Virus record (IMG/VR): IMGVR_UViG_3300023202_000142
Span: 62,001 to 126,000 of that record
DNA length: 64,000 nt
Source: a virus
Reading direction: 5' to 3' (one strand)
Shown: piece after piece, positions 5,487 through 53,566 of the stretch
Numbering within the stretch: the first letter of the stretch is position 1
Layout of the letters: each line of letters opens with the position of its first letter
Translations under genes and position numbers: made by a program
The notes under the pieces: generated by a model
What the model was told of the DNA's origin: nothing
Databases searched by the model: none
Seen by the model: the letters and a program-made list of their open reading frames with translations, nothing else

Positions 5487-5515
5487 ATTGTGTGCACAGA
5501 GTGAACTTCAGTCAA
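5487..5515 (-). promoter_or_regulatory. GTGCAC-type sigma70-like promoter
   Basis: On the minus strand: TTGACT, 17-bp spacer, CACAAT, with the conserved GTGCAC overlapping the -10 region. It lies 29 bases upstream of the gene starting at 5458. The downstream leader contains ACCCC but no clear hairpin. Confidence 0.75.
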
Positions 5516-5524
5516 GGAGCAAGC

Positions 5525-5773
5525 ATGTGGGTCCGAAGTGACGCTGAAGGGGTTTTCGAGCTGAGCGAAGTTGACGGGATCTGGATTGACCACGAGGGGT
5601 CTCTGCCGACTCTCTACATCACCAGGCGCAACAGTGGCCGCCCTGTCGCGATGATGAGCCACCGGGACCCAACGGCCCTCTCCGAGGTCAAGAAAGGACT
5701 GGAGAAGGCCCTGGGCGTCCATGAGGGCGCCCACGACATCGCGTCATTCAAGAGCTACGATTATCGCTATTGA
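5525..5773 (+). CDS. Unknown small protein
   Basis: An 82-residue protein from ATG 5525, preceded by AAGGAG. That ribosome site overlaps the -35 element of the divergent promoter, so the two genes are packed back to back. The sequence MWVRSDAEGVFELSEVDGIW suggests a short beta-sheet domain followed by a helix (ALSEVKKGLEKALGV). No family is recognised. It ends by overlapping the 3' end of the next leftward gene by 26 bases. No rightward promoter is obvious, and the palindromic GTGCAC region may fire both ways. Confidence 0.65.
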   Translation: MWVRSDAEGVFELSEVDGIWIDHEGSLPTLYITRRNSGRPVAMMSHRDPTALSEVKKGLEKALGVHEGAHDIASFKSYDYRY

Positions 5774-6239
5774 GACAGTCTTCCGGGGTTACTTCGAGAT
5801 CCCGGAACAGCATGCGGAGAACAGCTTCCGCGGTCGAAGCCCGATTAGCGGCATCACTGATGATTTCCTCGCCCAACTCGGGATTGTCTGAGAAGTGATC
5901 TCGAACCTTCGCCTTGACCTCTTCGGTCATCACGTTGCCAGCCTTCTCGACCAACTCGCCGAGACGTTCTCGGCCGACATCTGCCCAGTTCATCGCGTTC
6001 TTCGAGCCCCTGCCGCTCAATGAGCCGTCCGCGTTAACGGTCAGCCAGCGTTTCGACTTCTGCCATTCTGAGAAGCCACGGCGACCGCAGGTTCGATACT
6101 TCGAGTTGGGGTAGATTCGCACGACATCGTCACCAGCCCAGACGTTCGCATCGAGCCAGCGCGAGTTGTTGCTCGCCCGGTTGAGTGCGACGAGAACTTC
6201 GCCGTGTCGCTTTCGCTCTGCAACGGTCATGTCGGTCAT
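5748..6239 (-). CDS. Unknown protein
   Basis: A 163-residue protein from ATG 6239, after CAGGAGGTAGCG, rather than the longer upstream frame, which would run through the leader hairpin and promoter. The N-terminal half contains WLDANVWAGDDVVRIYPNS and YRTCGRRGFSEWQ. The C-terminal half is helical and acidic (ELGEEIISDAANRAS). Arg/Trp-rich strands hint at nucleic-acid contact, but nothing is recognised. It has its own promoter (6287-6314) and leader hairpin. Confidence 0.7.
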   Translation of the reverse strand: MTDMTVAERKRHGEVLVALNRASNNSRWLDANVWAGDDVVRIYPNSKYRTCGRRGFSEWQKSKRWLTVNADGSLSGRGSKNAMNWADVGRERLGELVEKAGNVMTEEVKAKVRDHFSDNPELGEEIISDAANRASTAEAVLRMLFRDLEVTPEDCLNSDNRSS

Positions 6240-6255
6240 CGCTACCTCCTGTCGC

Positions 6256-6274
6256 GGGAGCGGGGTTGGCTCCC
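6256..6274 (-). promoter_or_regulatory. ACCCC-loop leader hairpin
   Basis: In the RNA: stem GGGAGC/GCTCCC with loop CAACCCC, 17 bases upstream of the start codon at 6239. It is one of a family of leader hairpins that sit between a GTGCAC promoter and a GGAGGTAG ribosome site. Confidence 0.65.
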
Positions 6275-6286
6275 TGGTGCATCTTG

Positions 6287-6314
6287 ATGATGTGCACGCA
6301 TTGCACGATGTCAA
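6287..6314 (-). promoter_or_regulatory. GTGCAC-type sigma70-like promoter
   Basis: Minus strand: TTGACA, 16-bp spacer, CATCAT, with GTGCAATGCGTGCAC between them, a 9-bp-spaced repeat of GTGCA. It drives the gene at 5748-6239. Confidence 0.75.
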
Positions 6315-6318
6315 CGGT

Positions 6319-6708
6319 CTATCTGTTTCGTGCTCGGTTGTTGATGTCTTCCCAGTTGAGACCGTTGAGCAACTCTCTTGCGACCTCACTATCCCTCAAG
6401 GTGTCGCCGAGGGCATCTGTGAGGGCCATCATGGCGTCCTTGCGGGATTCTTCGGTGTAGAGACCACCTGCCATTGCAATTCGGTTGAAGTCGCCTGAGA
6501 GGCGAATGAGGGTGCCCTCAAGGCCATCCGCGCCGACTGCCCTGGCGGCCTTGCTGGCCATGTCCAGCATGTTCCATGCGGACATGGCATCAGCGTTGAG
6601 ATCCGGTCCATCTGGGCCAGCCATTTTGAGGCGCCGCAGTAACCCTGAGCTACCGTATCCCCAGCGATTGAGGATCTCGTCGATTTCGGCTCTGAATGAT
6701 TTCGGCAT
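6319..6708 (-). CDS. Unknown helical protein
   Basis: A 129-residue protein from ATG 6708 with AGGAGA upstream. It is almost entirely helical (LLRRLKMAG, MSAWNMLDMASKAARAVGADG, AMMALTDALGDTLRDSEVARELLNG). It follows the preceding leftward gene after eight bases, so the two form a unit transcribed from the promoter at 7098-7125. No family is recognised. Its stop codon lies a few bases from the next promoter. Confidence 0.68.
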   Translation of the reverse strand: MPKSFRAEIDEILNRWGYGSSGLLRRLKMAGPDGPDLNADAMSAWNMLDMASKAARAVGADGLEGTLIRLSGDFNRIAMAGGLYTEESRKDAMMALTDALGDTLRDSEVARELLNGLNWEDINNRARNR

Positions 6709-6716
6709 CAGGTCTC

Positions 6717-7046
6717 CTATCGGTCGTATCGAGCCAGTTCGTCAGCCAGCGCTGCCGTTGCCGTTTCGACGGCAACGTGAGCGTCATGCATTCGATCCTC
6801 GAACCCTTCAGCGAGCTTGACGCCTCGCTCGTAGAGATCGGTGTAGGCAGCGGCGTTCTTCACGGCCTCATGGAGGGCGCGACAGGCATCGAACAAGCCG
6901 GGGTTCTCTTCCAGGACCCAGCGGGCAAGAACCCAAACGTTTCGCCAGCCCCACTCCCAGTGGGGCATGGCGCTGAACGCCGCCTCCGAGACGTAGGCGA
7001 CCGCGTTGGTATCCGCAGCCACGGTCATGTTGGTCACTTCGGTCAT
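6717..7046 (-). CDS. Unknown helical protein
   Basis: A 109-residue protein from ATG 7046 behind AGAGGAGGTAGTC. It is alanine-rich and helical (FDACRALHEAVKNAAAYTDLYERGVKL, then HVAVETATAALADELARYD) with a Trp-rich segment HWEWGWRNVWVLARWVL near residue 30-45 that could be a hydrophobic binding surface. Function is unknown. It is the first gene of a two-gene leftward unit with the conserved promoter and ACCCC hairpin. Confidence 0.68.
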   Translation of the reverse strand: MTEVTNMTVAADTNAVAYVSEAAFSAMPHWEWGWRNVWVLARWVLEENPGLFDACRALHEAVKNAAAYTDLYERGVKLAEGFEDRMHDAHVAVETATAALADELARYDR

Positions 7047-7065
7047 GACTACCTCCTCTGAAAAC

Positions 7066-7087
7066 GGGGAGGCGGGGTACCCTCCCC
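7066..7087 (-). promoter_or_regulatory. ACCCC-loop leader hairpin
   Basis: RNA stem GGGGAGG/CCTCCCC with loop GTACCCCG, 20 bases upstream of the start at 7046. The 3' arm CCTCC is also complementary to the nearby AGGAGG ribosome site, so an alternative pairing that hides the site is possible. Confidence 0.68.
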
Positions 7088-7097
7088 GGGCAAGGAC

Positions 7098-7125
7098 AAT
7101 GTGAACACAGTGCACACACCGTCAA
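7098..7125 (-). promoter_or_regulatory. GTGCAC-type sigma70-like promoter
   Basis: Minus strand: TTGACG, 16-bp spacer containing GTGCACTGTGTTCAC, then CACATT. The -35 overlaps the last codons of the upstream HNH gene. Confidence 0.75.
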
Positions 7126-7571
7126 GGGACATGCTTCCAGGTTTTTCGTTTAACCAGGTGACTGATCGCCGTGTGGGTCACGCCATATTCCCTACCCAGG
7201 GCCCGGAACGACTCACCCTGGGCAGACCTCTTCCGAATTTCCAGGACATCGTCGGGCGTGAGTTTCGCTGTGTTAACCCTTACACCCTTTGCTGTTCGGC
7301 CCTTCCTGACCGCGTCAAGGCGATTCTCTTTCTGCGTTCCCAACTTCAGGTGAGACGGACGAACGCAAGATGGATTGTCGCAAGTATGCATGATGATCTT
7401 GCCGTCCGGGATGGGCCCGTTCTCCAATTCAAACGACACTCTATGAACGTACTCATTTTTGCCGTTACAGCCGATGTACCCGTAACCAGCAGCATTGCTG
7501 GCACCTTCAAACACCCAGCATTCACCAGATTCATTGACCTTCTCGTAGAGCCTCTCACGTACGTTTGGCAT
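7122..7571 (-). CDS. HNH homing-type endonuclease
   Basis: A 149-residue HNH_3-type nuclease. The motif runs from about residue 41: YVHRVSFELENGPIPDG, then MHTCDNPSCVRPSHLKLGT with the usual H...N-P-x-C...H-L, and QKENRLD. The C-terminal part (about 100-149: LTPDDVLEIRKRSAQGES, YGVTHTAISHLVKRKTW) is a helix-turn-helix of the sort that gives free-standing phage endonucleases their DNA contact. It follows the 7597-8595 gene by 25 bases with GAGGAGG upstream. It is probably a mobile, self-spreading gene. No intron or intein is seen beside it. Confidence 0.88.
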   Translation of the reverse strand: MPNVRERLYEKVNESGECWVFEGASNAAGYGYIGCNGKNEYVHRVSFELENGPIPDGKIIMHTCDNPSCVRPSHLKLGTQKENRLDAVRKGRTAKGVRVNTAKLTPDDVLEIRKRSAQGESFRALGREYGVTHTAISHLVKRKTWKHVP

Positions 7572-7596
7572 AGCGCCTCCTCAGCGGGTTACATTG

Positions 7597-8595
7597 TTAC
7601 ATGTTCCACTCAGGAGTCATTTCGTCAAGGTCGACCTCTTCATCAGCTTTGACGGCTTCGAGAACCTCGGCCAACGAGAGGTTCTGTCGAAACGTGTGGT
7701 CGATGCGGTCTTCGACCGCGACGTACTCTTCGAGCAACTCCCGGTTGTGCTTCCCGGCGAGCACCAGGGCTTCCTTGGGGGCGAAGATGCAGAACGCGCA
7801 ACTCAGTCGCGGCATCCCCAGGTCGTAGGCCGGGTGGTGGGGAACGCCGGAGGCCCGAATCGTGGCCCAGACCTCGTGCTCCAGCCAGTGCTGAATCGGC
7901 AGCCAGGAGTCGACGTGCTGATTCGAGTTCGACTTCCGGTTCTCGAACTGGGTCTTCTTGGCGCGAGCCGGGGATTCCTCGGCTCGCAGACCCATGCAGT
8001 CCAGAATCCGGCAAGGACGACAGTCAGCCTTCTCGGGGTTCACCTTGCGCCACTCGCGGGCAAGCTGAGTGAAGACCTTGAGGATCGGACCGCGCTTGAA
8101 CTCCGAAGTGCACCAACGAGCGGCCGACGACGGCCAGGCCCCGCGACGCTCCGCGTAGTCCAGGATGTCTCCGTAGGTCTCACCCTTGGAGTAGGTCTTG
8201 CCGTTAACCTTGCAGATTCCACCGATCCTGGACGTCACGATGAAGGGGCACCCGTAAGCTTTGGCCTGTTCTTCGGCCAGCTCGCCGGTTCCCTCCCATT
8301 CGACTTTGCCGAGATCGGCATGAATGACGACGACGCGATCAGCGATGCCAGCATCTGACGCCAACCCGTGGACGTAGTCGAGCATGGCCTGGGAGTCCTT
8401 CCCGCCGGACGACGACACCGCGATGACATCGTACTCGGTGAGGTCGGGAACGACCCCGGCCTCGAACGACTCACCTGCGAAGCAGCGTTTGCAGTACGTG
8501 GAGGGCTTCTCGCCGCCGTACCGAAGCCCGAAGACCTCCCGGCATTCGTCCTTGGTCTCAGCGCGGACACCGCACTTGGGACACTCGTGGTTCAT
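7597..8595 (-). CDS. PP-loop ATPase (PAPS reductase-like) with N-terminal zinc knuckle
   Basis: A 332-residue protein from ATG 8595 behind GGAGGTAGCAA. Residues 1-40 form a knuckle CPKCG, then VFGLRYG and YCKRC, matching the C-terminal knuckle of the gene at 4145. The PP-loop SSSGGKDSQAML follows at about 60, then VVIHADLGKVEW. RWCTSEFKRGP (about 155) and CRPCRILDCMGLRAEES (about 195) fit the PAPS reductase/DndC-like superfamily, and CAFCIFAP lies near 280. It probably adenylates a substrate for nucleic-acid modification (inference). It has a conserved promoter and leader hairpin. Confidence 0.87.
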   Translation of the reverse strand: MNHECPKCGVRAETKDECREVFGLRYGGEKPSTYCKRCFAGESFEAGVVPDLTEYDVIAVSSSGGKDSQAMLDYVHGLASDAGIADRVVVIHADLGKVEWEGTGELAEEQAKAYGCPFIVTSRIGGICKVNGKTYSKGETYGDILDYAERRGAWPSSAARWCTSEFKRGPILKVFTQLAREWRKVNPEKADCRPCRILDCMGLRAEESPARAKKTQFENRKSNSNQHVDSWLPIQHWLEHEVWATIRASGVPHHPAYDLGMPRLSCAFCIFAPKEALVLAGKHNRELLEEYVAVEDRIDHTFRQNLSLAEVLEAVKADEEVDLDEMTPEWNM

Positions 8596-8615
8596 TTGCT
8601 ACCTCCGTTGAGAGA

Positions 8616-8637
8616 GGGGCGGCGGGGTAACCGCCCC
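8616..8637 (-). promoter_or_regulatory. ACCCC-loop leader hairpin
   Basis: RNA stem GGGGCGG/CCGCCCC with loop TTACCCCG, 21 bases before the start at 8595. It has the same layout and loop as the hairpin upstream of 7046. Confidence 0.68.
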
Positions 8638-8648
8638 GGAACACTTTC

Positions 8649-8676
8649 AATTTGTGCACGGAGATCACTCTGACAA
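8649..8676 (-). promoter_or_regulatory. GTGCAC-type sigma70-like promoter
   Basis: Minus strand: TTGTCA, 16-bp spacer with GTGATCTCCGTGCA, then CAAATT. It drives the PP-loop ATPase and HNH pair. Confidence 0.72.
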
Positions 8677-8699
8677 GGGCTCAAACTCCCCCTGCCAAA

Positions 8700-8722
8700 G
8701 GGCCCCGGGCAACCCGGGGCCC
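8700..8722 (-). terminator. Rho-independent terminator
   Basis: Ten-pair GC stem GGGCCCCGGG/CCCGGGGCCC with a three-base loop. On the minus strand it is followed by a short TTT. It ends the small gene at 8728-8919 just upstream of the next promoter. Confidence 0.7.
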
Positions 8723-8727
8723 ACTGT

Positions 8728-8919
8728 TCAGCCGTTGACCTCTTCGACCACGGCTTTCGCGAACTCGGTGGGGTGACAGTGTTTGTTGCAGAACCCCATC
8801 TTGTCGAACTTCGACATTTTCATTACGGGGATTTCGTTGGTCGCTACGAAGTGCTCAAGGTCTTTGAAGTCCTCGTCACTCATGGCGTTGGCGGTGCTTA
8901 CGATCTCTTCGACAGTCAT
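8728..8919 (-). CDS. Unknown small protein
   Basis: A 63-residue protein from ATG 8919 behind CAGGAGGTAGCC. It is helical and acidic (MSDEDFKDLEHFVATNE) with a CNKHCHPTEF segment (about residues 44-53) that could bind a metal through two Cys and His. No family is recognised. It is a single-gene unit with its own promoter, leader hairpin and terminator, which suggests it is made independently and perhaps early. Confidence 0.65.
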   Translation of the reverse strand: MTVEEIVSTANAMSDEDFKDLEHFVATNEIPVMKMSKFDKMGFCNKHCHPTEFAKAVVEEVNG

Positions 8920-8939
8920 GGCTACCTCCTGTTGGGATT

Positions 8940-8964
8940 CCGGGCGGTGGGGTTACCGACCCGG
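8940..8964 (-). promoter_or_regulatory. ACCCC-loop leader hairpin
   Basis: RNA stem of CCGGG/CCCGG and CGGT/ACCG with a one-base bulge and an AACCCC loop, 20 bases before the start at 8919. The arm sequences differ from the other copies while the loop is kept. Confidence 0.62.
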
Positions 8965-8971
8965 CACCCTG

Positions 8972-8999
8972 AGTATGTGCACAGATCTCACTCCGTCAA
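8972..8999 (-). promoter_or_regulatory. GTGCAC-type sigma70-like promoter
   Basis: Minus strand: TTGACG, 16-bp spacer with GTGAGATCTGTGCA, then CATACT. The -35 forms the last sense codons of the gene at 8988-9194. Confidence 0.75.
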
Positions 9000-9194
9000 G
9001 GCTTTTCGTAACACATCAATGTCGATGCCCGGCCACCCCGCAACATCGATTGCGCTTTCGACGTCATCAAGCGCGGCTTCGATGATCTCCCAGGCGACGT
9101 CATGGAGCCCGGCAAGCGGTTCGGGCTCCGGCAAGATTGGGCGGGGGATCAGTTTGTCGTACCGGCGAATGTCGAAAAAGTCAGGCTTTGGCAT
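8988..9194 (-). CDS. Unknown small acidic protein
   Basis: A 68-residue protein whose ATG (9192-9194) overlaps the stop of the GroES-like gene (TAATG), so translation is probably coupled. It is Pro-rich early on (LIPRPILPEPEPLAG), followed by an acidic helix (IIEAALDDVESAIDVAG). Function is unknown. Its last codons (GCC TTG ACG GAG) contain the -35 box of the next promoter, so coding and promoter functions share DNA here. Confidence 0.65.
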   Translation of the reverse strand: MPKPDFFDIRRYDKLIPRPILPEPEPLAGLHDVAWEIIEAALDDVESAIDVAGWPGIDIDVLRKALTE

Positions 9195-9505
9195 TACTCC
9201 ACCAGGGCTTCGATCTCATCGTAGCGGGCGATCACGTGATTGATCCCTTCGATCTCTACCTCGGAGCCGGCCTTCCAGCTCACGACGACTCGATCGCCGA
9301 TCTCAAGGTCGACAGGGTGCCCTTCCTTGCCGGGACCCCTGGCCACCACCACTGCCTCGACGCTGGGGTGTGGCCCCTTGGCCTGGAGTCGCGAGAAATC
9401 CCGCTCATGCTTCTCGTTGAACACGATGAGGCCACTTTCTAGCGTTGTGGTCTCTGCTTTTTCGTCGCGGCGCAAAACGACGCGGTCATACATTGGTTCG
9501 ATCAT
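9194..9505 (-). CDS. GroES-like co-chaperonin
   Basis: A 103-residue GroES-fold protein. MIEPMYDRVVLRRDEKAETT opens like the first GroES strand, residues 18-35 (TTTLESGLIVFNEKHERD) correspond to the mobile loop, and VEAVVVARGPG, EIGDRVVVSWKAGSEVEI and HVIARYDEIEALVE match the usual GroES core and end. T4-like phages encode gp31 to help host GroEL fold their capsid protein, and this could do the same. It lies in a three-gene leftward unit started at the promoter near 9930 and is coupled to both neighbours. Confidence 0.82.
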   Translation of the reverse strand: MIEPMYDRVVLRRDEKAETTTLESGLIVFNEKHERDFSRLQAKGPHPSVEAVVVARGPGKEGHPVDLEIGDRVVVSWKAGSEVEIEGINHVIARYDEIEALVE

Positions 9506-9903
9506 GCGTTCTCCGGGTCAACGAATCGGGTGATGTTGACGACGTAGCCGCCTTGGCTGGGGCGATAGCGTTGCGGGTCACCAACGTCGCGAGCGCGAAC
9601 CTTCCAGCCATCTCCAAGATCTTCCTCAGCCCTGGCGATGGCGGCTTCCTTTGATTCGGATGGCCCCAGGACAAGCAAGATCGTCTTGGTCTGCTGGATC
9701 TTGCCGATTTTGCCGATATCCCGCAGGATGACCTCGCAGTCTTTTCCCTTGCGGTCCAGGTAGTCTTCGGGGAAGTCTTCCATGTCGACCAAGACGTCGA
9801 GGACCGATAGGCCCGAGACCTCATCGACTACTGTCAGTTGGAGCTGGGGCACGCCTGAGCGATCCGCCTCATTCAGCTTGAGCTTACCCTTGAATGTTTC
9901 CAC
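9502..9903 (-). CDS. Unknown protein
   Basis: A 133-residue protein. The most likely start is GTG 9903, with GGAAG upstream. A beta-rich first half (LKLNEADRSGVPQLQLTVVDEVSG, then VLDVLVDMEDFPEDYLDRKG) is followed by a helix-strand section (ESKEAAIARAEEDLGDGWKVRARDV). No family is recognised. It is the first gene of the leftward unit that continues into the GroES-like gene through a four-base ATGA overlap. Confidence 0.68.
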   Translation of the reverse strand: METFKGKLKLNEADRSGVPQLQLTVVDEVSGLSVLDVLVDMEDFPEDYLDRKGKDCEVILRDIGKIGKIQQTKTILLVLGPSESKEAAIARAEEDLGDGWKVRARDVGDPQRYRPSQGGYVVNITRFVDPENA

Positions 9904-9929
9904 ATCACTTCCGATCTGGTAGACGCCGT

Positions 9930-9958
9930 ACGTTACGTGCGTGCACTACAGGTGTCAA
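9930..9958 (-). promoter_or_regulatory. GTGCAC-type promoter
   Basis: Minus strand: TTGACA, 17-bp spacer with AGTGCACGCACG, then TAACGT. It lies between divergent genes and reads leftward into the gene starting at 9903. Confidence 0.65.
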
Positions 9959-9966
9959 CAGGTACC

Positions 9967-10275
9967 ATGAACGACAAAGACCTTAGATCTCTCCTCGCCG
10001 ACGCCTCTGGCGACCTCTTCGACCTCAAGGCCGAACTCGGTGACGTTATCTACAAGCCCAACCGATGCGCTGTCTACAGGACACCGGGATCCTGGGTTGT
10101 GAAGCTAGTGCTCCGCGGCGCATCCAGACGAGATGAAGTAGACGTCCAGAAGACATTCACGGACGAGTTTCTGTCGGCGTGTATCGAGACGCACGGACCA
10201 GATCTCGCGTTCCAGCTCCTCAAGACGTCGATGCGGAAAATGTTCAGGTCGGAGATCGATCGGGTGATGGCGTAA
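9967..10275 (+). CDS. Unknown small protein
   Basis: A 102-residue protein from ATG 9967. MNDKDLRSLLADASGDLFDLKAELG is followed by a strand-rich part (RCAVYRTPGSWVVKLVL) and a basic helical end. No family is recognised. It diverges from the 9903 unit with only about 60 bases between the starts, and its 3' end overlaps the helix-turn-helix gene by about 30 bases. Confidence 0.62.
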   Translation: MNDKDLRSLLADASGDLFDLKAELGDVIYKPNRCAVYRTPGSWVVKLVLRGASRRDEVDVQKTFTDEFLSACIETHGPDLAFQLLKTSMRKMFRSEIDRVMA

Positions 10276-10540
10276 CCATTACCTCAACCAGGGCATCCGA
10301 CAAGGTCGTCGCGACCCTCTCTGCCTCTCGTTTCGCCTGATCCTTGTTCAGCGGGGGCATCAAGACCGTTGGTGCGATCTCCAGAGCGTCAGCGATCGCG
10401 TAGAGCGTGGACACCTTGGGGTCACCACCCTCCTCGATGTGGGCGATCGTTGAGTGAGAGACGCCAGCGAGCTTGCCTACAGCGTGCTGGGTCATCCCGC
10501 GATCCATTCTGAGGCCGACCATGGTGTGCGCGAGCTTCAT
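10244..10540 (-). CDS. XRE-family helix-turn-helix regulator
   Basis: A 98-residue protein with a Cro/CI-type domain at residues 3-60: LAHTMVGLRMDRGMTQHAVGK, then LAGVSHSTIAHIEEG (turn and recognition helix) and STLYAIADALEI. A short basic linker and an acidic tail follow. It is a likely DNA-binding repressor or activator and one of three such proteins in this region. Any of them could read the GTGCAC motifs at the promoters. It overlaps the gene upstream by four bases. Confidence 0.85.
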   Translation of the reverse strand: MKLAHTMVGLRMDRGMTQHAVGKLAGVSHSTIAHIEEGGDPKVSTLYAIADALEIAPTVLMPPLNKDQAKREAERVATTLSDALVEVMVTPSPDRSPT

Positions 10541-11028
10541 TTCCCCTCCATCGCAATAAACTCGGCTCGAAGCGACAGGCTCTCTTCATCAAGCTCGATG
10601 CCTCGGTACATATGGCGAAGCTGCTTCTCAGCAGCGTCTGCCCACACCCTGTTGGGCTTGCCGCTCGGTGATTTTCCGCTGCGCCTGTATGAGATCATGG
10701 CCGATTCGATCTTGGTCCTGTAACGCTTATTGAATGTGATAGCCAGCGCCTCATCTTCGCCCAGTTCAAGGATCTGACAGACCCCCTGGAACTTAGCCAG
10801 GACGCAGGGCTCGCCCTTCCTGATGTCGTCGAAACCTATGAATTTCCAGATAAAGAACTTCGTCAGGCTGTTCAGGTCATCGATGCGGTAGCGAACCAGA
10901 CCGCCGCTCGTTTTTGGTGTCCCAGTCTTGTTGCGCAGGGGTTCGAATTTCTCGGCGAGCCAGGCGTTGAAATCCTCGGCGACGCGCTCTCGATGAAGCC
11001 GGCGCTTTCTAGCGTGTTGGTTTTCCAT
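10537..11028 (-). CDS. Unknown basic protein
   Basis: A 163-residue protein from ATG 11028: MENQHARKRRLHRERVAEDF. The first residues are strongly basic, and the rest is mixed helix and strand (SLTKFFIWKFIGFDD, LELGEDEALAITFNKRYRTK). The -10 of its likely promoter (11037-11042) lies so close that the message would start almost at the ATG, so it may be leaderless. No family is recognised. It is translated just ahead of the XRE regulator, with which it overlaps. Confidence 0.68.
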   Translation of the reverse strand: MENQHARKRRLHRERVAEDFNAWLAEKFEPLRNKTGTPKTSGGLVRYRIDDLNSLTKFFIWKFIGFDDIRKGEPCVLAKFQGVCQILELGEDEALAITFNKRYRTKIESAMISYRRSGKSPSGKPNRVWADAAEKQLRHMYRGIELDEESLSLRAEFIAMEGK

Positions 11029-11036
11029 GTGCACGC

Positions 11037-11064
11037 AGTGTACATCGGCCACCCCTTCCGTCAA
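11037..11064 (-). promoter_or_regulatory. GTGCAC-type promoter, leaderless arrangement
   Basis: Minus strand: TTGACG, 16-bp spacer, TACACT, then GTGCAC running into the ATG at 11028. Here the GTGCAC lies downstream of the -10, around the likely transcription start. Confidence 0.6.
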
Positions 11065-11104
11065 TCCCTGGAGTGTCCTACGATTCCCGGAACCGGAGGT
11101 TCGC

Positions 11105-11788
11105 ATGCCCTACAAGACGACGTCAGACATTCCCCAGCCCGTCCAGGACGCACTTCCAGCGAAGGCCCAGGACATGTGGATGAAGGTCTACAACTCGGCG
11201 AGCAAGCAATACGATGGCGACAAGAGCCGATCTGCGGCAACAGCCTGGGCCGCAGTGAAGCGCAAGTACAAGAAAGGGGAGAACGGAGATTGGGCTCTCA
11301 AGGAAGGACTCATTGAGGCCGTGGACCGCCTCCTGGGCGTAACCAGCGCGCTGCTGCTGCTCTTGCTGCTGTCGGGGTGTGCCTCGGCGCCAGAGCAGAC
11401 TGAATGCCCTGGGGTGCCCCCTGAAGCCGCTTACAGCTTCGAGCTTGTTCGGGTTGTCGACGGTGACACCATTGAGGTCCTCGTGGACATTGGTTTCAAC
11501 ACCTACCGCAAAGTAAGCGCCCGCCTGGACGGAGTCGATACACCTGAGATCTATGGCGTCAAGAAGTGGATGGACGACGCCAAGACGGCCTACACCGAGG
11601 AGTACGCCAGGGGTGCCGCCGCCTCGGAGTTCACGAAGTCGTGGCTTCGGTCTGAATGCCCCTGCACCATTGAGGTCGACGGTGCCGGCAAGTACGGGCG
11701 GTGGATTATCGTGGTTTACTCAGCGAACGGCGCATCGCTTAACGATGCTCTGGTTGAAAGCGGCAACGCTGTCATCGCGGAATACTGA
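11105..11788 (+). CDS. ChaB domain fused to lipoprotein-anchored staphylococcal-type nuclease
   Basis: A 227-residue single frame. Residues 1-62 are a ChaB domain (MPYKTTSDIPQPVQDALP, then AATAWAAVKRKYKKGENGDW). Residues 76-90 (SALLLLLLLSGCASAP) are a hydrophobic stretch with a lipobox cysteine. From about 105 there is a thermonuclease domain with RVVDGDTIEV, ARLDGVDTPEIYG and GKYGRWIIVVY, which keeps the Asp, Arg, Glu and second Arg of the active site. An in-frame GTG at 11322 (VDRLLGVTSA), preceded by AAGGAAGG, would give a conventional secreted lipoprotein nuclease. Either two products come from one frame, or a cytosolic domain is joined to a membrane-anchored nuclease. Confidence 0.82.
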   Translation: MPYKTTSDIPQPVQDALPAKAQDMWMKVYNSASKQYDGDKSRSAATAWAAVKRKYKKGENGDWALKEGLIEAVDRLLGVTSALLLLLLLSGCASAPEQTECPGVPPEAAYSFELVRVVDGDTIEVLVDIGFNTYRKVSARLDGVDTPEIYGVKKWMDDAKTAYTEEYARGAAASEFTKSWLRSECPCTIEVDGAGKYGRWIIVVYSANGASLNDALVESGNAVIAEY

Positions 11789-12026
11789 GGTCAACAAACA
11801 CGGGCGTACATGCACCCATGAACGCTCCAACGACATTGTACTCCATCCAGTCAATCGCATCCTCACGATCCCAGTCTTCCCGCTCCATTAAGACCTCGAC
11901 GCATTTGTCGTAGTCGTAAGCGACGACCTCCATCCCGACACGGCGCGCCATGCCGATGATCGCCTTGTCGAGGCCGTCAATGAGGATCGCTTCAGGGTTC
12001 CTTTCCGCGATTTCTTCCTGAGTCAT
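11772..12026 (-). CDS. Unknown conserved-type small protein
   Basis: An 84-residue protein, probably from ATG 12026 (MTQEEIAERNPEAILIDGLD). ARRVGMEVVAYDYDKCVEVLMERE, followed by DAIDWMEYNVVGAFMGACTPVFVDL, is a pattern I associate with a widespread phage/bacterial hypothetical family, but I know of no function for it. It overlaps the upstream helix-turn-helix gene by about 35 bases and the end of the nuclease gene by 17 bases. Confidence 0.68.
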   Translation of the reverse strand: MTQEEIAERNPEAILIDGLDKAIIGMARRVGMEVVAYDYDKCVEVLMEREDWDREDAIDWMEYNVVGAFMGACTPVFVDLSIPR

Positions 12027-12297
12027 AGTCGTTCGCGTCCGCAAAGAAGTGTACAACGCCGCCTTCGTAGTCGTATCCAAGACCGTATATCACTTTCACG
12101 AGAGTCTTGAATCCGGTGTTACCGCCGGCCTCGATGCGGTCCAGGGTGTGGACGTGTACGCCGGCGTCGCTTGCTAGGTCCACGCGTGTCTTGCTGGTCA
12201 GGTCTCGCTCGTGCCGAATGAAATCACCGACCTGGACAAGGACGTCATCGCTGGATAACTTGTGCACTCTGTTCACCCGTTCGTCAAGGTGCTCCAT
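11992..12297 (-). CDS. XRE-family helix-turn-helix regulator
   Basis: A helix-turn-helix domain covers VGDFIRHERDLTSKTRVDLA, then SDAGVHVHTLDRIEAGG and LVKVIYGLGYDYEG. The start is uncertain. ATG 12297 would place the promoter inside the gene and has no ribosome site, whereas a GTG at 12265-12267 lies within the GTGCAC motif itself and would need a leaderless message. ATG 12297 shares the palindrome CCATGG with the divergent gene. The product is likely a regulator acting on its own divergent region (inference). Confidence 0.72.
   Translation of the reverse strand: MEHLDERVNRVHKLSSDDVLVQVGDFIRHERDLTSKTRVDLASDAGVHVHTLDRIEAGGNTGFKTLVKVIYGLGYDYEGGVVHFFADANDYDSGRNRGKEP
12259..12287 (-). promoter_or_regulatory. 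GTGCAC-type promoter
   Basis: Minus strand: TTGACG, 17-bp spacer with GTGAACAGAGTG, then CACAAG. It lies between (or within the 5' end of) divergent genes. The AAGGTG that serves the rightward gene's start at 12296 lies immediately beside it. Confidence 0.6.
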
Positions 12298-12625
12298 GGA
12301 AATTATCGACCTAATGTCTCGTGAGGAACTGGCAGACCGAGTCGGCCTTTCGCCTGGCTATGTCGCGAGATGCGCGCGGGAGGAACGGTTTCCTGGCCAC
12401 CGGTTCTTTATCTATCGGACCCGAGCCAAAGACAAGTGGTTCCACCACTACGCTGCCGTTGATTTCGGCGAGCAGGGGCTGTGGGGGTGGCTGAAGGTCC
12501 AGGGTGTGGACGAAGCTGCTCGCACGCTGAAGATAGAGCGGTTTGCTTTCACCCGGGCGCTGAGGGAGGGAGATCCGGCCTTACTCAGGCAGATCCGGGG
12601 GCACCTGAATCCGCTGAACCGCTGA
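12296..12625 (+). CDS. Putative DNA-binding protein with N-terminal HTH
   Basis: A 109-residue protein from ATG 12296 (AAGGTG upstream). MSREELADRVGLSPGYVARCAREERFPGHR looks like a MerR/excisionase-style or sigma-like helix-turn-helix (two helices plus a short wing). It is followed by a Trp/His-rich middle (KDKWFHHYAAVDFGEQGLWGW) and a C-terminal DEAARTLKIERFAFTRALREGD, which could be a second HTH. It lies opposite an XRE gene and near a serine recombinase, so a regulatory or recombination-directionality role is possible (inference). Confidence 0.65.
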   Translation: MEIIDLMSREELADRVGLSPGYVARCAREERFPGHRFFIYRTRAKDKWFHHYAAVDFGEQGLWGWLKVQGVDEAARTLKIERFAFTRALREGDPALLRQIRGHLNPLNR

Positions 12626-12860
12626 ATTGGTCTCGGACACGAGCTTCCGCAAAGTCCTCAGCGATGTGCTCATGCATGCCAGCCGTAATGAAGGCCGCGG
12701 TGAGCATATGAAAGGTCATTTTGGCCCGGAAGCTGTTGTCGGTCCGCACATCCTCGACAGGGGTCGCACCCGGGTGCAGTTGTACCTGCAGCGTTTGAGT
12801 TGGGGCCTTTCGTCGTAGTTCACGACCCTGTCTTCGTAGTTCTTGGTAGTCGATGTTCAT
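12585..12860 (-). CDS. Unknown small protein
   Basis: A 91-residue protein from ATG 12860, which overlaps the recombinase stop (ATGA). It has a basic N-terminus (YQELRRQGRELRRKAPTQTL), then a helical part (KMTFHMLTAAFITAGMHEHIAEDFAEARV) and a small-residue tail. The codons for LHPGAT contain one of the five copies of the palindromic 14-mer GCACCCGGGTGCAG (12766-12779). Function is unknown, and coupling suggests it works with the recombinase. Confidence 0.65.
   Translation of the reverse strand: MNIDYQELRRQGRELRRKAPTQTLQVQLHPGATPVEDVRTDNSFRAKMTFHMLTAAFITAGMHEHIAEDFAEARVRDQFSGSADSGAPGSA
12766..12779. repeat. Palindromic 14-mer repeat, copy 1
   Basis: GCACCCGGGTGCAG, containing the 12-bp perfect palindrome GCACCCGGGTGC. 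It lies inside the gene at 12585-12860. Identical copies occur near 19.3, 29.2, 48.1 and 63.4 kb. Confidence 0.85.
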
Positions 12861-13531
12861 TCTTCGATGAGACGTTTGACCTGTGTGGGGTGAAACGGCT
12901 TCCCTTTGCGATTTTTCAAGCCGAAGTGAGCCATGGCGCGCGAGATCGATCGGAGCGAGCCCCCTTCTTTTCTGAGCTGCCGCGCAGTTCGGATGGCCTT
13001 CTGTTCGGCCGGATCTTCTATGAGATTGACCCCGTCATCGTCAAGGGCGTACCCGTAGGGGGTTCCGCCACCCGTATACTCTCCACGTGCGCGCTTGCGC
13101 TCCAGCGCTTTGGCGGTCCGCTCCCCAATCACTTTTCGCTCCCACTGCGAGATCGCGATGAGAACGTTGAGTACCAGTTCGCCGGTGGCCGTGCTGGTGT
13201 CGATTTGCTCAGAGATCGAAACGAGCCTGAACTGAGACTCGAAGTAATTCTCCAAAAGGATCGCGAAGTCCTTGACCGAGCGTGTCAGCCGATCGAGTTT
13301 GGCGACGATAACACCGTCGACGTCGCCTGATTTTTTGAGCCGCGTGAGCATTGCTTCCAGCCCCTCCCGGTTCAGGGTCGAGCCGGACACGCCCGCGTCC
13401 ACTTCAACACCGATCAGGTCGTGCTCGAATAGTTTACAGTAGGACCTGATTCGTTCCTCTTGGGCCTCGATGCCTAGCCCAGACTCAGCCTGGGCTTCGG
13501 TCGACACCCGAATGTATCCGATGAGTCTCAT
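12857..13531 (-). CDS. Serine recombinase (resolvase/invertase family)
   Basis: A 224-residue site-specific recombinase. The N-terminal catalytic domain has IGYIRVSTEAQ with the nucleophilic Ser at about residue 10, then VDAGVSGSTLNREGLEAML, GVIVAKLDRLTRSVKDFA (Arg active-site helix) and NVLIAISQWERKVIGERTA. A short recombinase region follows (ARGEYTGGGTPYGYALDDDG, then RQLRKEGGSLRSISRAMAHFG) and ends in a DNA-binding tail (HPTQVKRLIEE). It is far shorter than large serine integrases, so inversion or resolution is as plausible as integration. No attachment site was seen. The start ATG 13531 follows AGGAGGTCACG. Confidence 0.9.
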   Translation of the reverse strand: MRLIGYIRVSTEAQAESGLGIEAQEERIRSYCKLFEHDLIGVEVDAGVSGSTLNREGLEAMLTRLKKSGDVDGVIVAKLDRLTRSVKDFAILLENYFESQFRLVSISEQIDTSTATGELVLNVLIAISQWERKVIGERTAKALERKRARGEYTGGGTPYGYALDDDGVNLIEDPAEQKAIRTARQLRKEGGSLRSISRAMAHFGLKNRKGKPFHPTQVKRLIEE

Positions 13532-13540
13532 CGTGACCTC

Positions 13541-13849
13541 CTATCCAGAACACTTGAGTGCCAGACGGACATCCGATCCGGTGTCTTCGAGGACCACGGC
13601 GAAGGAGTTCCGCGAGGCGAAGCGCCGCCCGGTGTCGGGCGAGACGTTAACAACTCGGAACGAGTAGAGGACCTTGTGAGTGCCGACGCTGTAGAAGAGT
13701 CGACCGCGATCAGCATCTATCTCACTGGCGCAAGCGTCAGAGCCGACGACGAGAGTATCGCCTGCGGAGCGAACGCCGTGAACCCGGTGGGCGAGCCCGA
13801 GCGCTTCGAGCGCTTCGGAAAGAGGGACTGCTTCATCGAACCGTGCCAT
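13541..13849 (-). CDS. Unknown small protein
   Basis: A 102-residue protein from ATG 13849 behind CAGGAGGTAGCAA. A helical start (FDEAVPLSEALEALGLAHRV) leads into a beta-rich body (GDTLVVGSDACASEIDADRG, then KVLYSFRVVNVSPDTGRRFA, FAVVLEDTGSDVRLALKC). No family is recognised. It lies ten bases ahead of the recombinase and shares its promoter, ACCCC leader hairpin and likely regulation. Confidence 0.68.
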   Translation of the reverse strand: MARFDEAVPLSEALEALGLAHRVHGVRSAGDTLVVGSDACASEIDADRGRLFYSVGTHKVLYSFRVVNVSPDTGRRFASRNSFAVVLEDTGSDVRLALKCSG

Positions 13850-13868
13850 TTGCTACCTCCTGGTGAGT

Positions 13869-13890
13869 GGGAAGGCGGGGTGCCCTTCCC
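13869..13890 (-). promoter_or_regulatory. ACCCC-loop leader hairpin
   Basis: RNA stem GGGAAGG/CCTTCCC with loop GCACCCCG, 20 bases before the start at 13849. It follows the same design as the hairpins at 7066 and 8616. Confidence 0.68.
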
Positions 13891-13901
13891 GGTGCATCGA
13901 C

Positions 13902-13929
13902 AATATGTGCACGCCGTGCACAGTGTCAA
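13902..13929 (-). promoter_or_regulatory. GTGCAC-type sigma70-like promoter
   Basis: Minus strand: TTGACA, 16-bp spacer with GTGCACGGCGTGCA, then CATATT. It carries two perfect GTGCAC hexamers nine bases apart and drives the unknown gene plus the serine recombinase. Confidence 0.8.
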
Positions 13930-13990
13930 GCGAGTTGCTTTGTAGGTTCGCTGGGCTGACAATGCAGCTCGACCAGCACAGGAGAGTAAA

Positions 13991-14242
13991 ATGGCAGACA
14001 AGGCCAAAACAGCGATCAAAGAACTGATGGACACCGACTACAAAAAGCCGGACGCGCACTTCAAGATGGTGCAACTGCTCAAGGGTCTGGCCGCGGCGTC
14101 GAAAAAAGACCAGCAGGCCAAGCTGTTCCTCGACGGTGTCAGCGATGCGCTGACGACGGTAGGTAAGACGGTGCTGAAGGCGTCCGAGAAGGAAGAGTCT
14201 GCCGGTCTTACCGGCGACCTCATCGAGAACTACGTCGGTTGA
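13991..14242 (+). CDS. Unknown lysine-rich helical protein
   Basis: An 83-residue protein from ATG 13991, preceded by AGGAGAG. It is helical and lysine-rich (KAKTAIKELMDTDYKKPDAH, then MVQLLKGLAAASKKDQQAKL), ending GLTGDLIENYVG. It could be a small DNA- or head-associated protein, but no motif is diagnostic and it lacks the FxxE N-terminus. Its end overlaps the following leftward gene. Confidence 0.65.
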   Translation: MADKAKTAIKELMDTDYKKPDAHFKMVQLLKGLAAASKKDQQAKLFLDGVSDALTTVGKTVLKASEKEESAGLTGDLIENYVG

Positions 14243-14637
14243 GCGATCTCGTGCTCAGTGGTGCGTCGAACGCTTTCGCGTGCTGCGCGGTGCGCGACAC
14301 CGGAATCACCGGAAGACTCCATTACGGCCCGAAAGGTCCTTAGCCACAACAGCTTCATCTCCTGGGGTAGAGTTTCCAGATCTTCTGGTAGATCTGCCTG
14401 GAGCTGTCGCTCTTCGAAATGCTCTACTCTATTGTAGAGGACCTTCAGGCGCGCGTCCGATCGAGCGCGTTTGACCTCGCACACATCGTCCATCATGGAG
14501 CCCTTTCGGCCGGCCTTGATGACGTAGATGCGATCCTCCAGGAACGCAACAATGCGCTCCATGAGACGTTCATTGTTCTTCTCATCGCTCCAGTCGGCCA
14601 GTTCGACCAAATCGTCTACGGTTTCTCTTCGGATCAT
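14230..14637 (-). CDS. Unknown helical protein
   Basis: A 135-residue protein from ATG 14637, with CAGGAGACAGC upstream. It is highly charged and helical (ETVDDLVELADWSDEKNNERL, then VKRARSDARLKVLYNRVEHFEERQ). The product ends RTTEHEIAQPT. No family is recognised. The gene forms its own leftward unit with a near-ideal promoter and lacks the ACCCC hairpin. Confidence 0.65.
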   Translation of the reverse strand: MIRRETVDDLVELADWSDEKNNERLMERIVAFLEDRIYVIKAGRKGSMMDDVCEVKRARSDARLKVLYNRVEHFEERQLQADLPEDLETLPQEMKLLWLRTFRAVMESSGDSGVAHRAARESVRRTTEHEIAQPT

Positions 14638-14659
14638 GCTGTCTCCTGTGAAGGGCACC

Positions 14660-14687
14660 ATTATGTGCACTCACGTCACACTGTCAA
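14660..14687 (-). promoter_or_regulatory. GTGCAC-type sigma70-like promoter
   Basis: Minus strand: TTGACA, 16-bp spacer with GTGACGTGAGTGCA, then CATAAT. It is the closest match in the window to the sigma70 consensus and lies 23 bases upstream of the ATG at 14637. Confidence 0.8.
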
Positions 14688-14750
14688 CCTGGGGTGCATC
14701 TGAGGTTGGCCGGTGATATACAAGATCATCAAGCCAAGCGGAGAATTGCG

Positions 14751-14957
14751 ATGAAATACATCACGCTGTTGGTATTCGCCCTGTTGCTGCTGCTCGTTGG
14801 ATGCGAGGAGAAGCCGAAACCGGACGCTCCCGAAGAGGACGCCGGAGTTGCAAGGGTCGATGCCGGAACCGAAGAGCCTGCCGCCGCAGATGTTGGTGAG
14901 CAGGCTGATGTCGACAACTCCGACGCGAAAGCGGACGCAGAAGGGAGCAAGGAATGA
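14751..14957 (+). CDS. Small acidic lipoprotein
   Basis: A 68-residue protein from ATG 14751 (CGGAGA upstream). The signal peptide MKYITLLVFALLLLLVGC has a lipobox, with Cys at about residue 18 as the lipid-modified residue. The mature part is Asp/Glu/Ala-rich and disordered (EEDAGVARVDAGTEEPAAAD). It would be anchored in the outer or inner membrane of a Gram-negative cell. Superinfection exclusion or an outer spanin subunit are possible but unproven. It overlaps the next gene by four bases. Confidence 0.78.
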   Translation: MKYITLLVFALLLLLVGCEEKPKPDAPEEDAGVARVDAGTEEPAAADVGEQADVDNSDAKADAEGSKE

Positions 14958-15727
14958 CCACGCAGATCGTCGTCACAAACGAAACCGAAGACGTAGCCGA
15001 GGTCCGAACGGTGACCATCGGGTCAGCCGAGGAGGGAGACCTTCACAGCGTCGTGTTCGAGGGAGCCGCGTTCGAGTACGAGGTCGGCGCCGCAGAGACG
15101 CCAACCGACGTAGCCTCGGCGCTCCAGGCTCTGATTGCCGCAAGCGCAATCCCGTTCACTGCTTCGGCGTCGCTCGCTGAAATCGAAGTGACCGCGGACC
15201 GAGCTGGCCGACCGTTCGCGCTCTCAGTCTCGCACCCCAATGACAGTGTTGCGCTGACGACGGCTGCCGAGCAGGCTGTCGATGTACCGCTCCCGGGCGG
15301 CTTCAGTCGTACGGTGCCGGAGGCCGGTCAGGTCAGCCTCCAGGTGAACCTCACTCGACTCCCTCCGGGCGGCCTCCAGGCTCTCAAGGATCTGGAGACT
15401 GCCGGGTTGGTTTCAGTCCTTCCACCCATCGAAGCCCTTCAGGGCGGAGAGGTGGAGAACCTCACGGTCCCCGACGGAGTCACGCTGACGATGTCCAATA
15501 TCGTGGTGAACGGTGACCTCAGTGTTGCCGGAGACCTCACCATGGAAGGGTGCCGCGTTGAAGGTGACGCAGCCATGGCTGCAGGCACGTTGACGGGCGA
15601 GGACTGCTACTTCGGTGGCGATCTCGACAACAACTCTGACCCCGGAACGGTCACTCTCAATGGCGGCCGCGTCATCGGAGCAAAGTCTGGCACGATCACT
15701 CACACGCAGGGTGACTCTGGGTCCTGA
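14954..15727 (+). CDS. Putative virion beta protein
   Basis: A 257-residue protein with alternating strands throughout. It has a first domain (TIGSAEEGDLHSVVFEGAAF, with FTASASLAEIEVTADRAG) of the sort found in tail or decoration proteins. A C-terminal repeat-like section from about 165 (VTLTMSNIVVNGDLSVAGDL, then RVEGDAAMAAGTLTGEDC, YFGGDLDNN) looks like a right-handed beta-helix. It lies beside a lipoprotein gene, away from the structural cluster. It could be an appendage or surface protein. A strong terminator follows. Confidence 0.65.
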   Translation: MTTQIVVTNETEDVAEVRTVTIGSAEEGDLHSVVFEGAAFEYEVGAAETPTDVASALQALIAASAIPFTASASLAEIEVTADRAGRPFALSVSHPNDSVALTTAAEQAVDVPLPGGFSRTVPEAGQVSLQVNLTRLPPGGLQALKDLETAGLVSVLPPIEALQGGEVENLTVPDGVTLTMSNIVVNGDLSVAGDLTMEGCRVEGDAAMAAGTLTGEDCYFGGDLDNNSDPGTVTLNGGRVIGAKSGTITHTQGDSGS

Positions 15728-15784
15728 TTCGGTAGGCGAGCAATCGTCTACTGGAACGCGCGCCCCCTCGCGCGTGTAGCCGCA

Positions 15785-15828
15785 CGGGAGCAGACGGGTC
15801 CTCCACCCTGTCTGCTCCCGTTTTATTT
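15785..15828 (+). terminator. Rho-independent terminator between convergent genes
   Basis: Eleven-pair stem CGGGAGCAGAC/GTCTGCTCCCG with an inner GGGT/ACCC, followed by TTTTATTT. It ends the rightward unit finishing at 15727 and overlaps the stop region of the leftward csrA. A second hairpin, ACGCGCG/CGCGCGT, lies about 20 bases upstream. Confidence 0.9.
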
Positions 15829-16056
15829 GCCGTGTCCCCTTCGAATGATTACCGGAGGCTCGAAGGGCTCTTCCGGCTCGGAGTCTTCGTCACCGCCTGA
15901 GCGTGTCGACCCCAACAACTCCTCGCGGTTAATTGGAATTTCCTTGGGCGCAACGATGCCGATTCGGACCTGACTTCGACGAATCTCGCGCACTTCGATG
16001 GTGATGTCGTCGCCAACCTGGATTCGTTCGCCGACTTTGCGGGTGAGGGTAAGCAT
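15823..16056 (-). CDS. csrA: CsrA/RsmA translational regulator
   Basis: A 77-residue protein whose first 50 residues are a textbook CsrA: MLTLTRKVGERIQVGDDITI, then VREIRRSQVRIGIVAPKEIPI and NREELL. The Leu4, Arg6-Lys7 and Arg44-equivalent RNA-binding positions appear kept. The extra acidic tail (GGDEDSEPEEPFEPPVII) is unusual. CsrA dimers bind GGA in RNA hairpins and usually block ribosome sites. Here it could retune host messages or the phage's own leaders. The start ATG 16056 follows ACGGAGGACACT, and the promoter is at 16102-16130. Confidence 0.93.
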   Translation of the reverse strand: MLTLTRKVGERIQVGDDITIEVREIRRSQVRIGIVAPKEIPINREELLGSTRSGGDEDSEPEEPFEPPVIIRRGHGK

Positions 16057-16101
16057 AGTGTCCTCCGTGACGTTGTGGACGTTCCATGTCGATGTGCACT
16101 C

Positions 16102-16130
16102 TGTGTACTACCTGGAGCGCAGGGGGTCAA
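16102..16130 (-). promoter_or_regulatory. GTGCAC-associated promoter for csrA
   Basis: Minus strand: TTGACC, 17-bp spacer, TACACA, with GTGCAC just downstream at 16094-16099. The -35 is made from the last codons of the upstream HTH gene. Confidence 0.65.
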
Positions 16131-25620: not shown

Positions 25621-25662
25621 AACCTGTGCACAGGTGCTAGCTTCGCTGGTCAGGAGGTTGAA

Positions 25663-27159: not shown

Positions 27160-27186
27160 TTGACGGTTGTGAAGCTCGTGCATAAG
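27160..27186 (+). promoter_or_regulatory. Promoter of the candidate non-coding RNA
   Basis: Plus strand: TTGACG, 15-16 bp spacer, CATAAG/ATAAGG, with GTGAAGCTCGTGCAT in the GTGCAC position. It is a rightward example of the promoter class otherwise seen on leftward genes. Transcription would start near 27190. Confidence 0.7.
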
Positions 27187-53533: not shown

Positions 53534-53566
53534 TTGATAATGTGTGCACGGATTGCACATTGTCAA
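53534..53566 (+). promoter_or_regulatory. Near-symmetrical GTGCAC promoter after the capsid gene
   Basis: Plus strand: TTGATA, 16-bp spacer with GTGTGCACGGATTG, then CACATT. The reverse strand reads TTGACA and CATTAT at an 18-bp spacing, so it could fire both ways; leftward firing would be antisense to the capsid gene. GCCCCG/CGGGGC at 53519 is a short hairpin closing the capsid gene. Confidence 0.6.

What the first reader, a model, noticed from the sequence alone, without database searches (positions are those of the whole stretch)
5487..16130. Eleven leftward promoters with TTGAC and a GTGCAC element overlapping the -10
Seen: at 5487, 6287, 7098, 8649, 8972, 9930, 11037, 12259, 13902, 14660 and 16102 the minus strand has TTGAC-like, 16-17 bp, then CATAAT-like. 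GTGCAC lies on or beside the -10, usually with a GTGnA half nine bases upstream. Plus-strand relatives occur at 27160, 34915 and 53534. Inference: a dispersed regulon in which one DNA-binding protein (phage XRE proteins at 10244, 11992 or 16108, or a host factor) covers the -10 of many small accessory genes.
Basis: partly seen in the sequence, partly recalled or inferred. Interest (0 to 1): 0.75.

Follow-up and report, generated by a model that had tools for sequence, protein, structure and literature searches.

The report
Phage early promoters sharing one operator
A 185-kb T4-type phage known only from metagenomes carries about 35 copies of a small control unit in front of its accessory genes, a strong host-type promoter with one built-in palindrome and often a matching RNA hairpin, which would let a single protein switch off a whole set of early genes at once.

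Summary
The window is part of a 185,324-bp virus record of the T4 superfamily. Genome-wide there are about 35 sites like CTTGAC-3bp-GTGCAC-3bp-GTGCAC-AtATTG, against 0.2 expected; nearly all are intergenic. GTGCAC is half of a 15-bp palindrome that fills the -35/-10 spacer. About 15 of these promoters continue into a 5'-leader hairpin with a conserved ACCCC loop and covarying stem, then AGGAGGTAGCgATG; this unit was copied as a block between unrelated genes. In a second, mostly leaderless class the palindrome covers the -10 and abuts ATG. One more operator is centred on the -10 of an XRE gene outside the window (G000 154284-154559). The shifting register favours steric repression over activation. 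Best reading: a phage HTH autorepressor shuts off strong early promoters, as Aca proteins do for acr operons, but across a genome. The protein is not identified; four XRE genes compete. New variant of a known kind.

The parts
5488..5515 (-). Promoter with operator 5492-5506 (GTTCACTCTGTGCAC), TTGACT; no leader hairpin; drives gene 4145-5458(-)
6287..6314 (-). Promoter, TTGACA-16-CATCAT, operator 6292-6306; drives 5748-6239(-)
6251..6279 (-). Leader hairpin GGGAGC-CAACCCC-GCTCCC
   Evidence: 19.9 bits, E 0.06
7098..7125 (-). Promoter, TTGACG-16-CACATT, operator 7101-7115 shifted by 2 bp; drives 6717-7046(-)
7060..7091 (-). Leader hairpin with loop GTACCCCG
   Evidence: 36.1 bits
8649..8676 (-). 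Promoter with TTGTCA as -35, operator 8654-8668; drives 7597-8595(-) (PAPS-reductase-like)
8610..8641 (-). Leader hairpin with loop TTACCCCG
   Evidence: 36.2 bits
8972..8999 (-). Promoter, TTGACG-16-CATACT, operator 8977-8991; drives 8728-8919(-)
8935..8966 (-). Leader hairpin with loop TAACCCCA
   Evidence: 29.6 bits
11029..11064 (-). Second-class promoter TTGACG-16-TACACT, operator 11029-11043 covers the -10 and directly abuts ATG of gene 10537-11028
10537..11028 (-). 163-aa protein, no family, probably from a leaderless mRNA; first gene of the XRE1 operon
10244..10540 (-). XRE1, HTH_3 protein, candidate regulator
   Evidence: (PF01381 6.2e-12)
12262..12287 (-). TTGACG and operator 12262-12276 inside the 5' end of XRE2 (11992-12297) and upstream of HTH gene 12296-12625(+)
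11992..12297 (-). XRE2, weak HTH match, candidate regulator; true start uncertain
13902..13929 (-). Canonical promoter TTGACA-16-CATATT with perfect operator 13907-13921; drives 13541-13849(-)
13863..13894 (-). Leader hairpin with loop GCACCCCG
   Evidence: 35.8 bits
14660..14687 (-). Promoter TTGACA-16-CATAAT, operator 14665-14679, no hairpin; drives 14230-14637(-)
16094..16130 (-). Second-class promoter TTGACC-17-TACACA, operator 16094-16108 over the -10; drives csrA
15823..16056 (-). CsrA homologue under the operator
   Evidence: PF02599 7.8e-20
16108..16533 (-). XRE3, C-terminal HTH_3 below the Pfam cut-off, candidate regulator
   Evidence: 1.8e-4, 21.9 bits against cut-off 23
25617..25631 (+). 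Operator-like site upstream of dda (25663-27132), between TTGTGA and TAGCTT
53539..53566 (-). Promoter with operator 53544-53558 pointing left, antisense to late gene 51991-53511; no SD or gene follows

Best explanation
These are host-sigma70-type early promoters of a T4-superfamily phage, each carrying the same 15-bp operator (GTGCAC-NNN-GTGCAC, one half strict, the other relaxed). On entry, host RNA polymerase would transcribe the accessory genes from them. A small phage-encoded HTH protein, made from a promoter of the same kind, would then bind the palindrome as a dimer, exclude RNA polymerase from all of them together and limit its own synthesis. In the canonical class the transcript should begin just before a short hairpin with an ACCCC loop, which probably protects the 5' end or binds a protein; the extended SD AGGAGGTAGC follows. 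Shown: sequence architecture, statistics, covariation, block-wise copying. Inferred: promoter activity, repression, early timing. Unproven: which protein binds. My ranking: XRE protein of G000 154284-154559 (about 0.35), XRE1 at window 10244-10540 (about 0.25), another phage protein (about 0.25), a host protein (about 0.15). The confidence below is for operator-mediated repression of early promoters, not for the identity of the protein.
For: About 35 sites against 0.2 expected, nearly all intergenic; 30 against 0.4 in an untrained count. Good sigma70 spacing (TTGAC-16/17-CATATT, CATAAT, TACACT). The operator sits in the spacer in most promoters, on the -10 or next to +1 in others, which suits occlusion. 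GTGCAC stays intact even where it is not part of the -10. Operators precede regulator genes: the XRE1 operon, csrA and the 154284 XRE gene, as in autoregulation. The late structural region has almost none. XRE-type HTH proteins can read TGCA repeats over a core promoter (BzdR, PMC6678401), and Aca HTH proteins repress strong early promoters through inverted repeats inside them (PMC9410906).
Against: No expression or binding data exist. No relative with the operator was found, so no co-variation of operator and repressor could be tested. Several HTH genes compete and none is singled out. Sites 53544 and G000 180685 face no obvious gene. The structural neighbours of the 154284 protein are weak (E 0.05 or more).
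Confidence: 0.68

Rival explanations
1. The palindrome is an activator or appropriator site: a phage protein binds it to turn these promoters on, a middle-type class in the manner of T4 MotA.
For: Common site across many promoters; T4 has such a class (general knowledge).
Against: The -35 TTGAC is retained in nearly all canonical sites, unlike MotA-dependent promoters that lack a -35 (general knowledge), and the site changes register relative to the -10.
Confidence: 0.1
2. It is an immunity system of a temperate or formerly temperate phage: the repressor silences the early regulon in a prophage or pseudolysogen, like the dispersed operators and stoperators of cluster A mycobacteriophages.
For: Many dispersed operators; a serine recombinase with an integrase-family match (224 aa, window 12857-13531) and XRE genes lie in the same block.
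Against: Sites are palindromic, in promoters and intergenic, while stoperators are asymmetric and mostly not promoter-associated (PMC6550527). The recombinase is short and matches DNA invertases too. No integrated relative was found in the genome scan. T4-type phages are virulent as far as known.
Confidence: 0.1
3. A host regulator owns the operator and the phage has copied it to tie its early genes to host physiology.
For: Operators of this form exist in bacteria: four Acidobacteria and Verrucomicrobia loci carry TTGACtttGTGCACnnnGTGCACA directly before one conserved small gene.
Against: Only 8 stretches in 84,980 genomes, no bacterial regulon seen. The host is unknown, so its genome could not be scanned.
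Confidence: 0.08
4. There is no regulator: the palindrome is a by-product of one promoter cassette that spreads by recombination between copies (PeSL-like), its sequence kept by homogenisation.
For: Cassettes at G000 3135 and 168190 are 97% identical over 78 nt while the flanks beyond the cassette are mostly 15-55% identical.
Against: In the leaderless promoters, the dda site and the XRE gene at 154284 the palindrome is kept without the rest of the cassette and in other registers; most cassette pairs are 72% or less identical, yet the strict half is nearly invariant.
Confidence: 0.06

Closest known systems
Aca (anti-CRISPR-associated) HTH autorepressors and acr-aca promoters
   Same: Strong early sigma70-type promoter with an inverted repeat inside the core promoter; small HTH protein expected to repress it and itself (PMC9410906). 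Aca1 is among the structural neighbours of the 154284 protein, weakly.
   Different: One operon per genome there; here about 35 promoters in one genome, with a co-travelling leader hairpin. No acr gene was looked for.
PeSL cassettes (promoter-early stem-loops) of T4-like phages
   Same: T4-superfamily phage; early-type promoter plus stem-loop repeated between small accessory genes and copied as a block. PeSLs are described as mediating gene shuffling in T4-like phages (cited in PMC4503421).
   Different: By their title PeSLs are promoter-terminator motifs; here the stem-loop is downstream in the leader, lacks a U-tract, has a conserved ACCCC loop, and the promoter contains a palindromic operator. 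The two PeSL papers are not held and could not be read.
Stoperators and operators of cluster A mycobacteriophages
   Same: One repressor site dispersed over a phage genome (PMC6550527).
   Different: Those are asymmetric, mostly outside promoters, and serve lysogeny.
SAS/ESAS of cluster K mycobacteriophages
   Same: Repeated start-associated sequences, half of them with 17-bp inverted repeats, upstream of many small genes (PMC3203893).
   Different: Different sequences, longer and imperfect repeats with a variable spacer, and a temperate siphovirus group.
BzdR (XRE) and CopG (RHH) operators
   Same: Two TGCA elements about one helical turn apart over the core promoter (PMC6678401).
   Different: BzdR spacing is TGCA-N6-TGCA, here TGCA-N5-TGCA; no RHH_1 protein was found in this genome.

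Membership tests
Phage early promoter with an HTH-repressor operator (Aca/Cro-like autorepression) | Inverted repeat within the core promoter | tested here: met
Phage early promoter with an HTH-repressor operator (Aca/Cro-like autorepression) | HTH gene under its own operator | tested here: met
   XRE gene G000 154284-154559 with operator on its -10; XRE1 operon
Phage early promoter with an HTH-repressor operator (Aca/Cro-like autorepression) | The HTH protein binds the repeat and represses | not testable with these tools
   needs reporter or gel shift
PeSL cassette of T4-like phages | T4-superfamily genome | tested here: met
PeSL cassette of T4-like phages | Early promoter and stem-loop repeated in intergenic regions and copied as a unit | tested here: met
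PeSL cassette of T4-like phages | The stem-loop is a terminator | tested here: not met
   no U-tract in eight of nine leaders checked, one run of four T
Cluster A stoperator system | Asymmetric sites, mostly not promoter-associated | tested here: not met
   palindromic and promoter-linked
CopG/RHH-type operator | RHH protein in the genome | tested here: not met
   PF01402 absent at E<=10; no RHH family among 99 short proteins
CsrA target hairpin | GGA in the hairpin loop | tested here: not met
   loops are nnACCCC(G/A)

The most novel reading that the evidence does not exclude
One small phage HTH protein, or a pair of regulators including the phage CsrA, controls the early set at two levels: it closes the promoter through the palindrome and also acts on the ACCCC-loop leader hairpin next to the ribosome-binding site, giving a genome-wide two-level early shut-off in a T4-type phage.
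Probability: 0.1. Interest if true: 0.78.

Novelty: new variant of a known kind. Interest (0 to 1): 0.55.

Why it matters
How T4-type phages outside the well-studied hosts time their early genes is largely unknown. A single operator built into about 35 early-type promoters, copied together with a leader hairpin, would be a simple answer that a reporter assay with four small proteins can test. It also points to the accessory genes of this uncultured phage that probably act first, and shows regulatory units, rather than genes, spreading through a phage genome.

Tried and rejected
Exact composite motif in IMG/VR: none outside the own record (very near records may be left out there). Relaxed motif: 18 contigs, one match each, none with the hairpin or SD; Rfam found no family in five of them, so my thought that the prophage-like ones are C4-type antisense-RNA promoters stays unproven. 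RHH repressor: rejected for this genome. CsrA as reader of the hairpin: the conserved loop lacks GGA, so not supported; CsrA at the SD (AGGAGG) is open. Intrinsic terminator: no U-tract. Relatives through capsid-region, portal, XRE1 and two early proteins: only distant structural contigs, no cassette. Virus Rctr197k shares a Cas12m-like gene but gave no portal match and no operator excess. Structure of the 163-aa leaderless protein without an alignment: too poor to use.
Full report
Setting. The window is G000:C1:62001-126000 of a 185,324-bp IMG/VR record, 59% G+C. ORF 50236-51942 matches T4-type prohead protease/scaffold; Dda, DnaB-type helicase, UvsX-like, UvsW-like helicase, terminase and portal families are present. 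I take it as a distant, uncultured member of the T4 superfamily; the host is unknown. I called 279 genes covering 91% of the record.

Check of the observation. The eleven sites were read directly. Ten hold a 15-bp palindrome whose two halves are GTGCAC, 9 bp apart start to start; because GTGCAC is itself palindromic, the site is at once a direct and an inverted repeat. A PWM refined over the whole record gives 36 hits above 12 bits (35 sites, since 7101 and 7103 are one) where shuffled genomes give 0.2. An untrained count of TTGAC followed by the operator gives 30 against 0.4, 23 of them with exactly 3 bp between TTGAC and the operator. 31 of the 36 hits are wholly intergenic, although intergenic DNA is 9% of the genome. 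Corrections: 9930 lacks the second half; 27160 and 34915 are weak; the promoter at 53534 runs leftward, antisense to a late gene.

Anatomy. Canonical class: CTTGAC-nnn-GTGCAC-nnn-GTGCAC-AtATTG, then within about 12 nt a hairpin in about 15 cases, then AGGAGGTAGCgATG. The hairpin has a loop nnACCCC(G/A) and a stem that varies in sequence but keeps pairing: 78 of 84 cells paired, against 61.5 (sd 2.5) when 3' arms are permuted among sites, 0 of 5000 as high (arms were placed by eye). On the MAFFT alignment covariation is 0.329 against 0.185, 0 of 500 (shuffles do not correct for copying between cassettes). A covariance model finds 16 matches up to E 0.1 in the phage record, all at operator promoters, and one in the relative L008 without an operator next to it, which I take as chance.

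Second class: -35, 16-17 bp, then GTGTA(A/G)TCTGTGCAC or GTACACnnnGTGCAC, with the -10 inside the left half and ATG directly behind (G000 40002 and 45196, window 11029), after three bases (G000 51123) or close by (16094). The -35 boxes at G000 45196 and 51123 are poor. These mRNAs would be leaderless or nearly so. Third case: the XRE gene G000 154284-154559 has TTGACA-17-CATAAT with the operator GTGCACATAATGCAC centred on the -10. At dda the operator lies between TTGTGA and TAGCTT.

Mechanism. GTGCAC is conserved wherever it falls relative to the promoter, so it is not merely part of the -10. A site that can sit in the spacer, on the -10 or at +1 suits a repressor that excludes RNA polymerase better than an activator that must touch it in one register (inference). 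The operator precedes regulator genes (XRE1 operon, csrA, the 154284 XRE gene and, at 12262, the XRE2/HTH pair), as expected of autoregulation. Small genes, mostly without a Pfam match, follow most cassettes. The most economical account is early transcription by host polymerase and collective shut-off by a phage HTH protein. The 154284 protein models as an HTH of moderate confidence (pLDDT 77); its best structural neighbours are HigA2, P22 c2, Aca1 and restriction-controller proteins, at E 0.05 or worse. Nothing singles out one XRE protein.

Spread of the unit. The cassettes at G000 3135 and 168190 are 97% identical over 78 nt and those at 14837 and 75907 82%, with identity dropping to background on both sides. 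Promoter, operator, hairpin and SD therefore moved as a block between unrelated genes. This resembles the PeSL cassettes of T4-like phages, with the differences given under Closest known systems.

Comparison. The same composite in bacteria is rare: 8 stretches in 84,980 genomes. Four of them stand directly upstream of one conserved gene of about 125 aa in Acidobacteria and Verrucomicrobia, which suggests that an unrelated regulator has found a similar operator. Literature used: PMC9410906, PMC6678401, PMC6550527, PMC3203893, PMC4503421. What I say of MotA, of T4 transcription and of CsrA targets is general knowledge.

Verdict. The feature is real and far beyond chance. I place it as a new variant of a known kind: genome-wide early-promoter operators in a T4-superfamily phage with a co-travelling leader hairpin. 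Function is inferred throughout.

Noticed in passing
L001:7782-8741 and L001:8801-10516(-), G000, outside the window: CRISPR-like array of 14 repeats of 36 bp with spacers of 18-59 bp next to a 571-aa Cas12m homologue (phmmer E 1.3e-83 to PDB 23vw; TNB domain 2.6e-16). Read on the minus strand each repeat ends in a hairpin, and a C-G/T-A exchange in the stem is seen among repeats. A compact, possibly non-cutting CRISPR system on a T4-type phage with irregular spacers. Virus Rctr197k (KX853510) has a homologue beside an annotated CRISPR.
   Followed up: partly
window 12766, 19306, 29190, 48142, 63421 and six more places in G000: A second dispersed perfect palindrome, GCACCCGGGTGC (often CTGCACCCGGGTGCGA), 11 copies, seven of them intergenic, not linked to the operator promoters.
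   Followed up: partly
L053-L056 (record of L043), L057-L058 (record of L042), L061-L062 (record of L047): Distant portal relatives carry other dispersed palindromes, GAACTYRAGTTC 23 times in 75 kb and 7 times in 30 kb, GCAATCGATTGC 5 times in 30 kb; GAACNNNNGTTC resembles a LexA-type box.
   Followed up: no
L029, L030, L033, L034: In Acidobacteria and Verrucomicrobia the motif TTGACtktGTGCACnnnGTGCACA stands directly before a conserved gene of about 125 aa starting MSTAY(V/I)SG, no Pfam match; to my eye an RHH-like N-terminus, so perhaps an autoregulated antitoxin-type gene.
   Followed up: partly
L010, L011, L012, L015, L017, L018, L020-L024: Prophage-like contigs share TTGAC(A)nnGTGCAnnnCGTGCACAAwAAT followed by a conserved stretch of about 60 nt ending in a hairpin and a T-run, which looks like a small RNA gene; no Rfam match in five of them.
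   Followed up: partly
window 53539-53566(-) and G000 180685-180699(-): Two operator promoters face leftward into the 3' end of a rightward gene without SD or ORF behind them; possible antisense RNAs.
   Followed up: no
window 12857-13531(-): 224-aa serine recombinase (Pfam Resolvase 5.4e-36, PHROG integrase and invertase families) inside the early block, unusual for a T4-type phage.
   Followed up: no
L003:4920-5162(+) and window 9194-9505(-): A probable HicA-type gene without an obvious HicB beside it, and a Cpn10/GroES-like gene; Pfam matched both families among the short proteins, the assignment to these ORFs is my reading.
   Followed up: no
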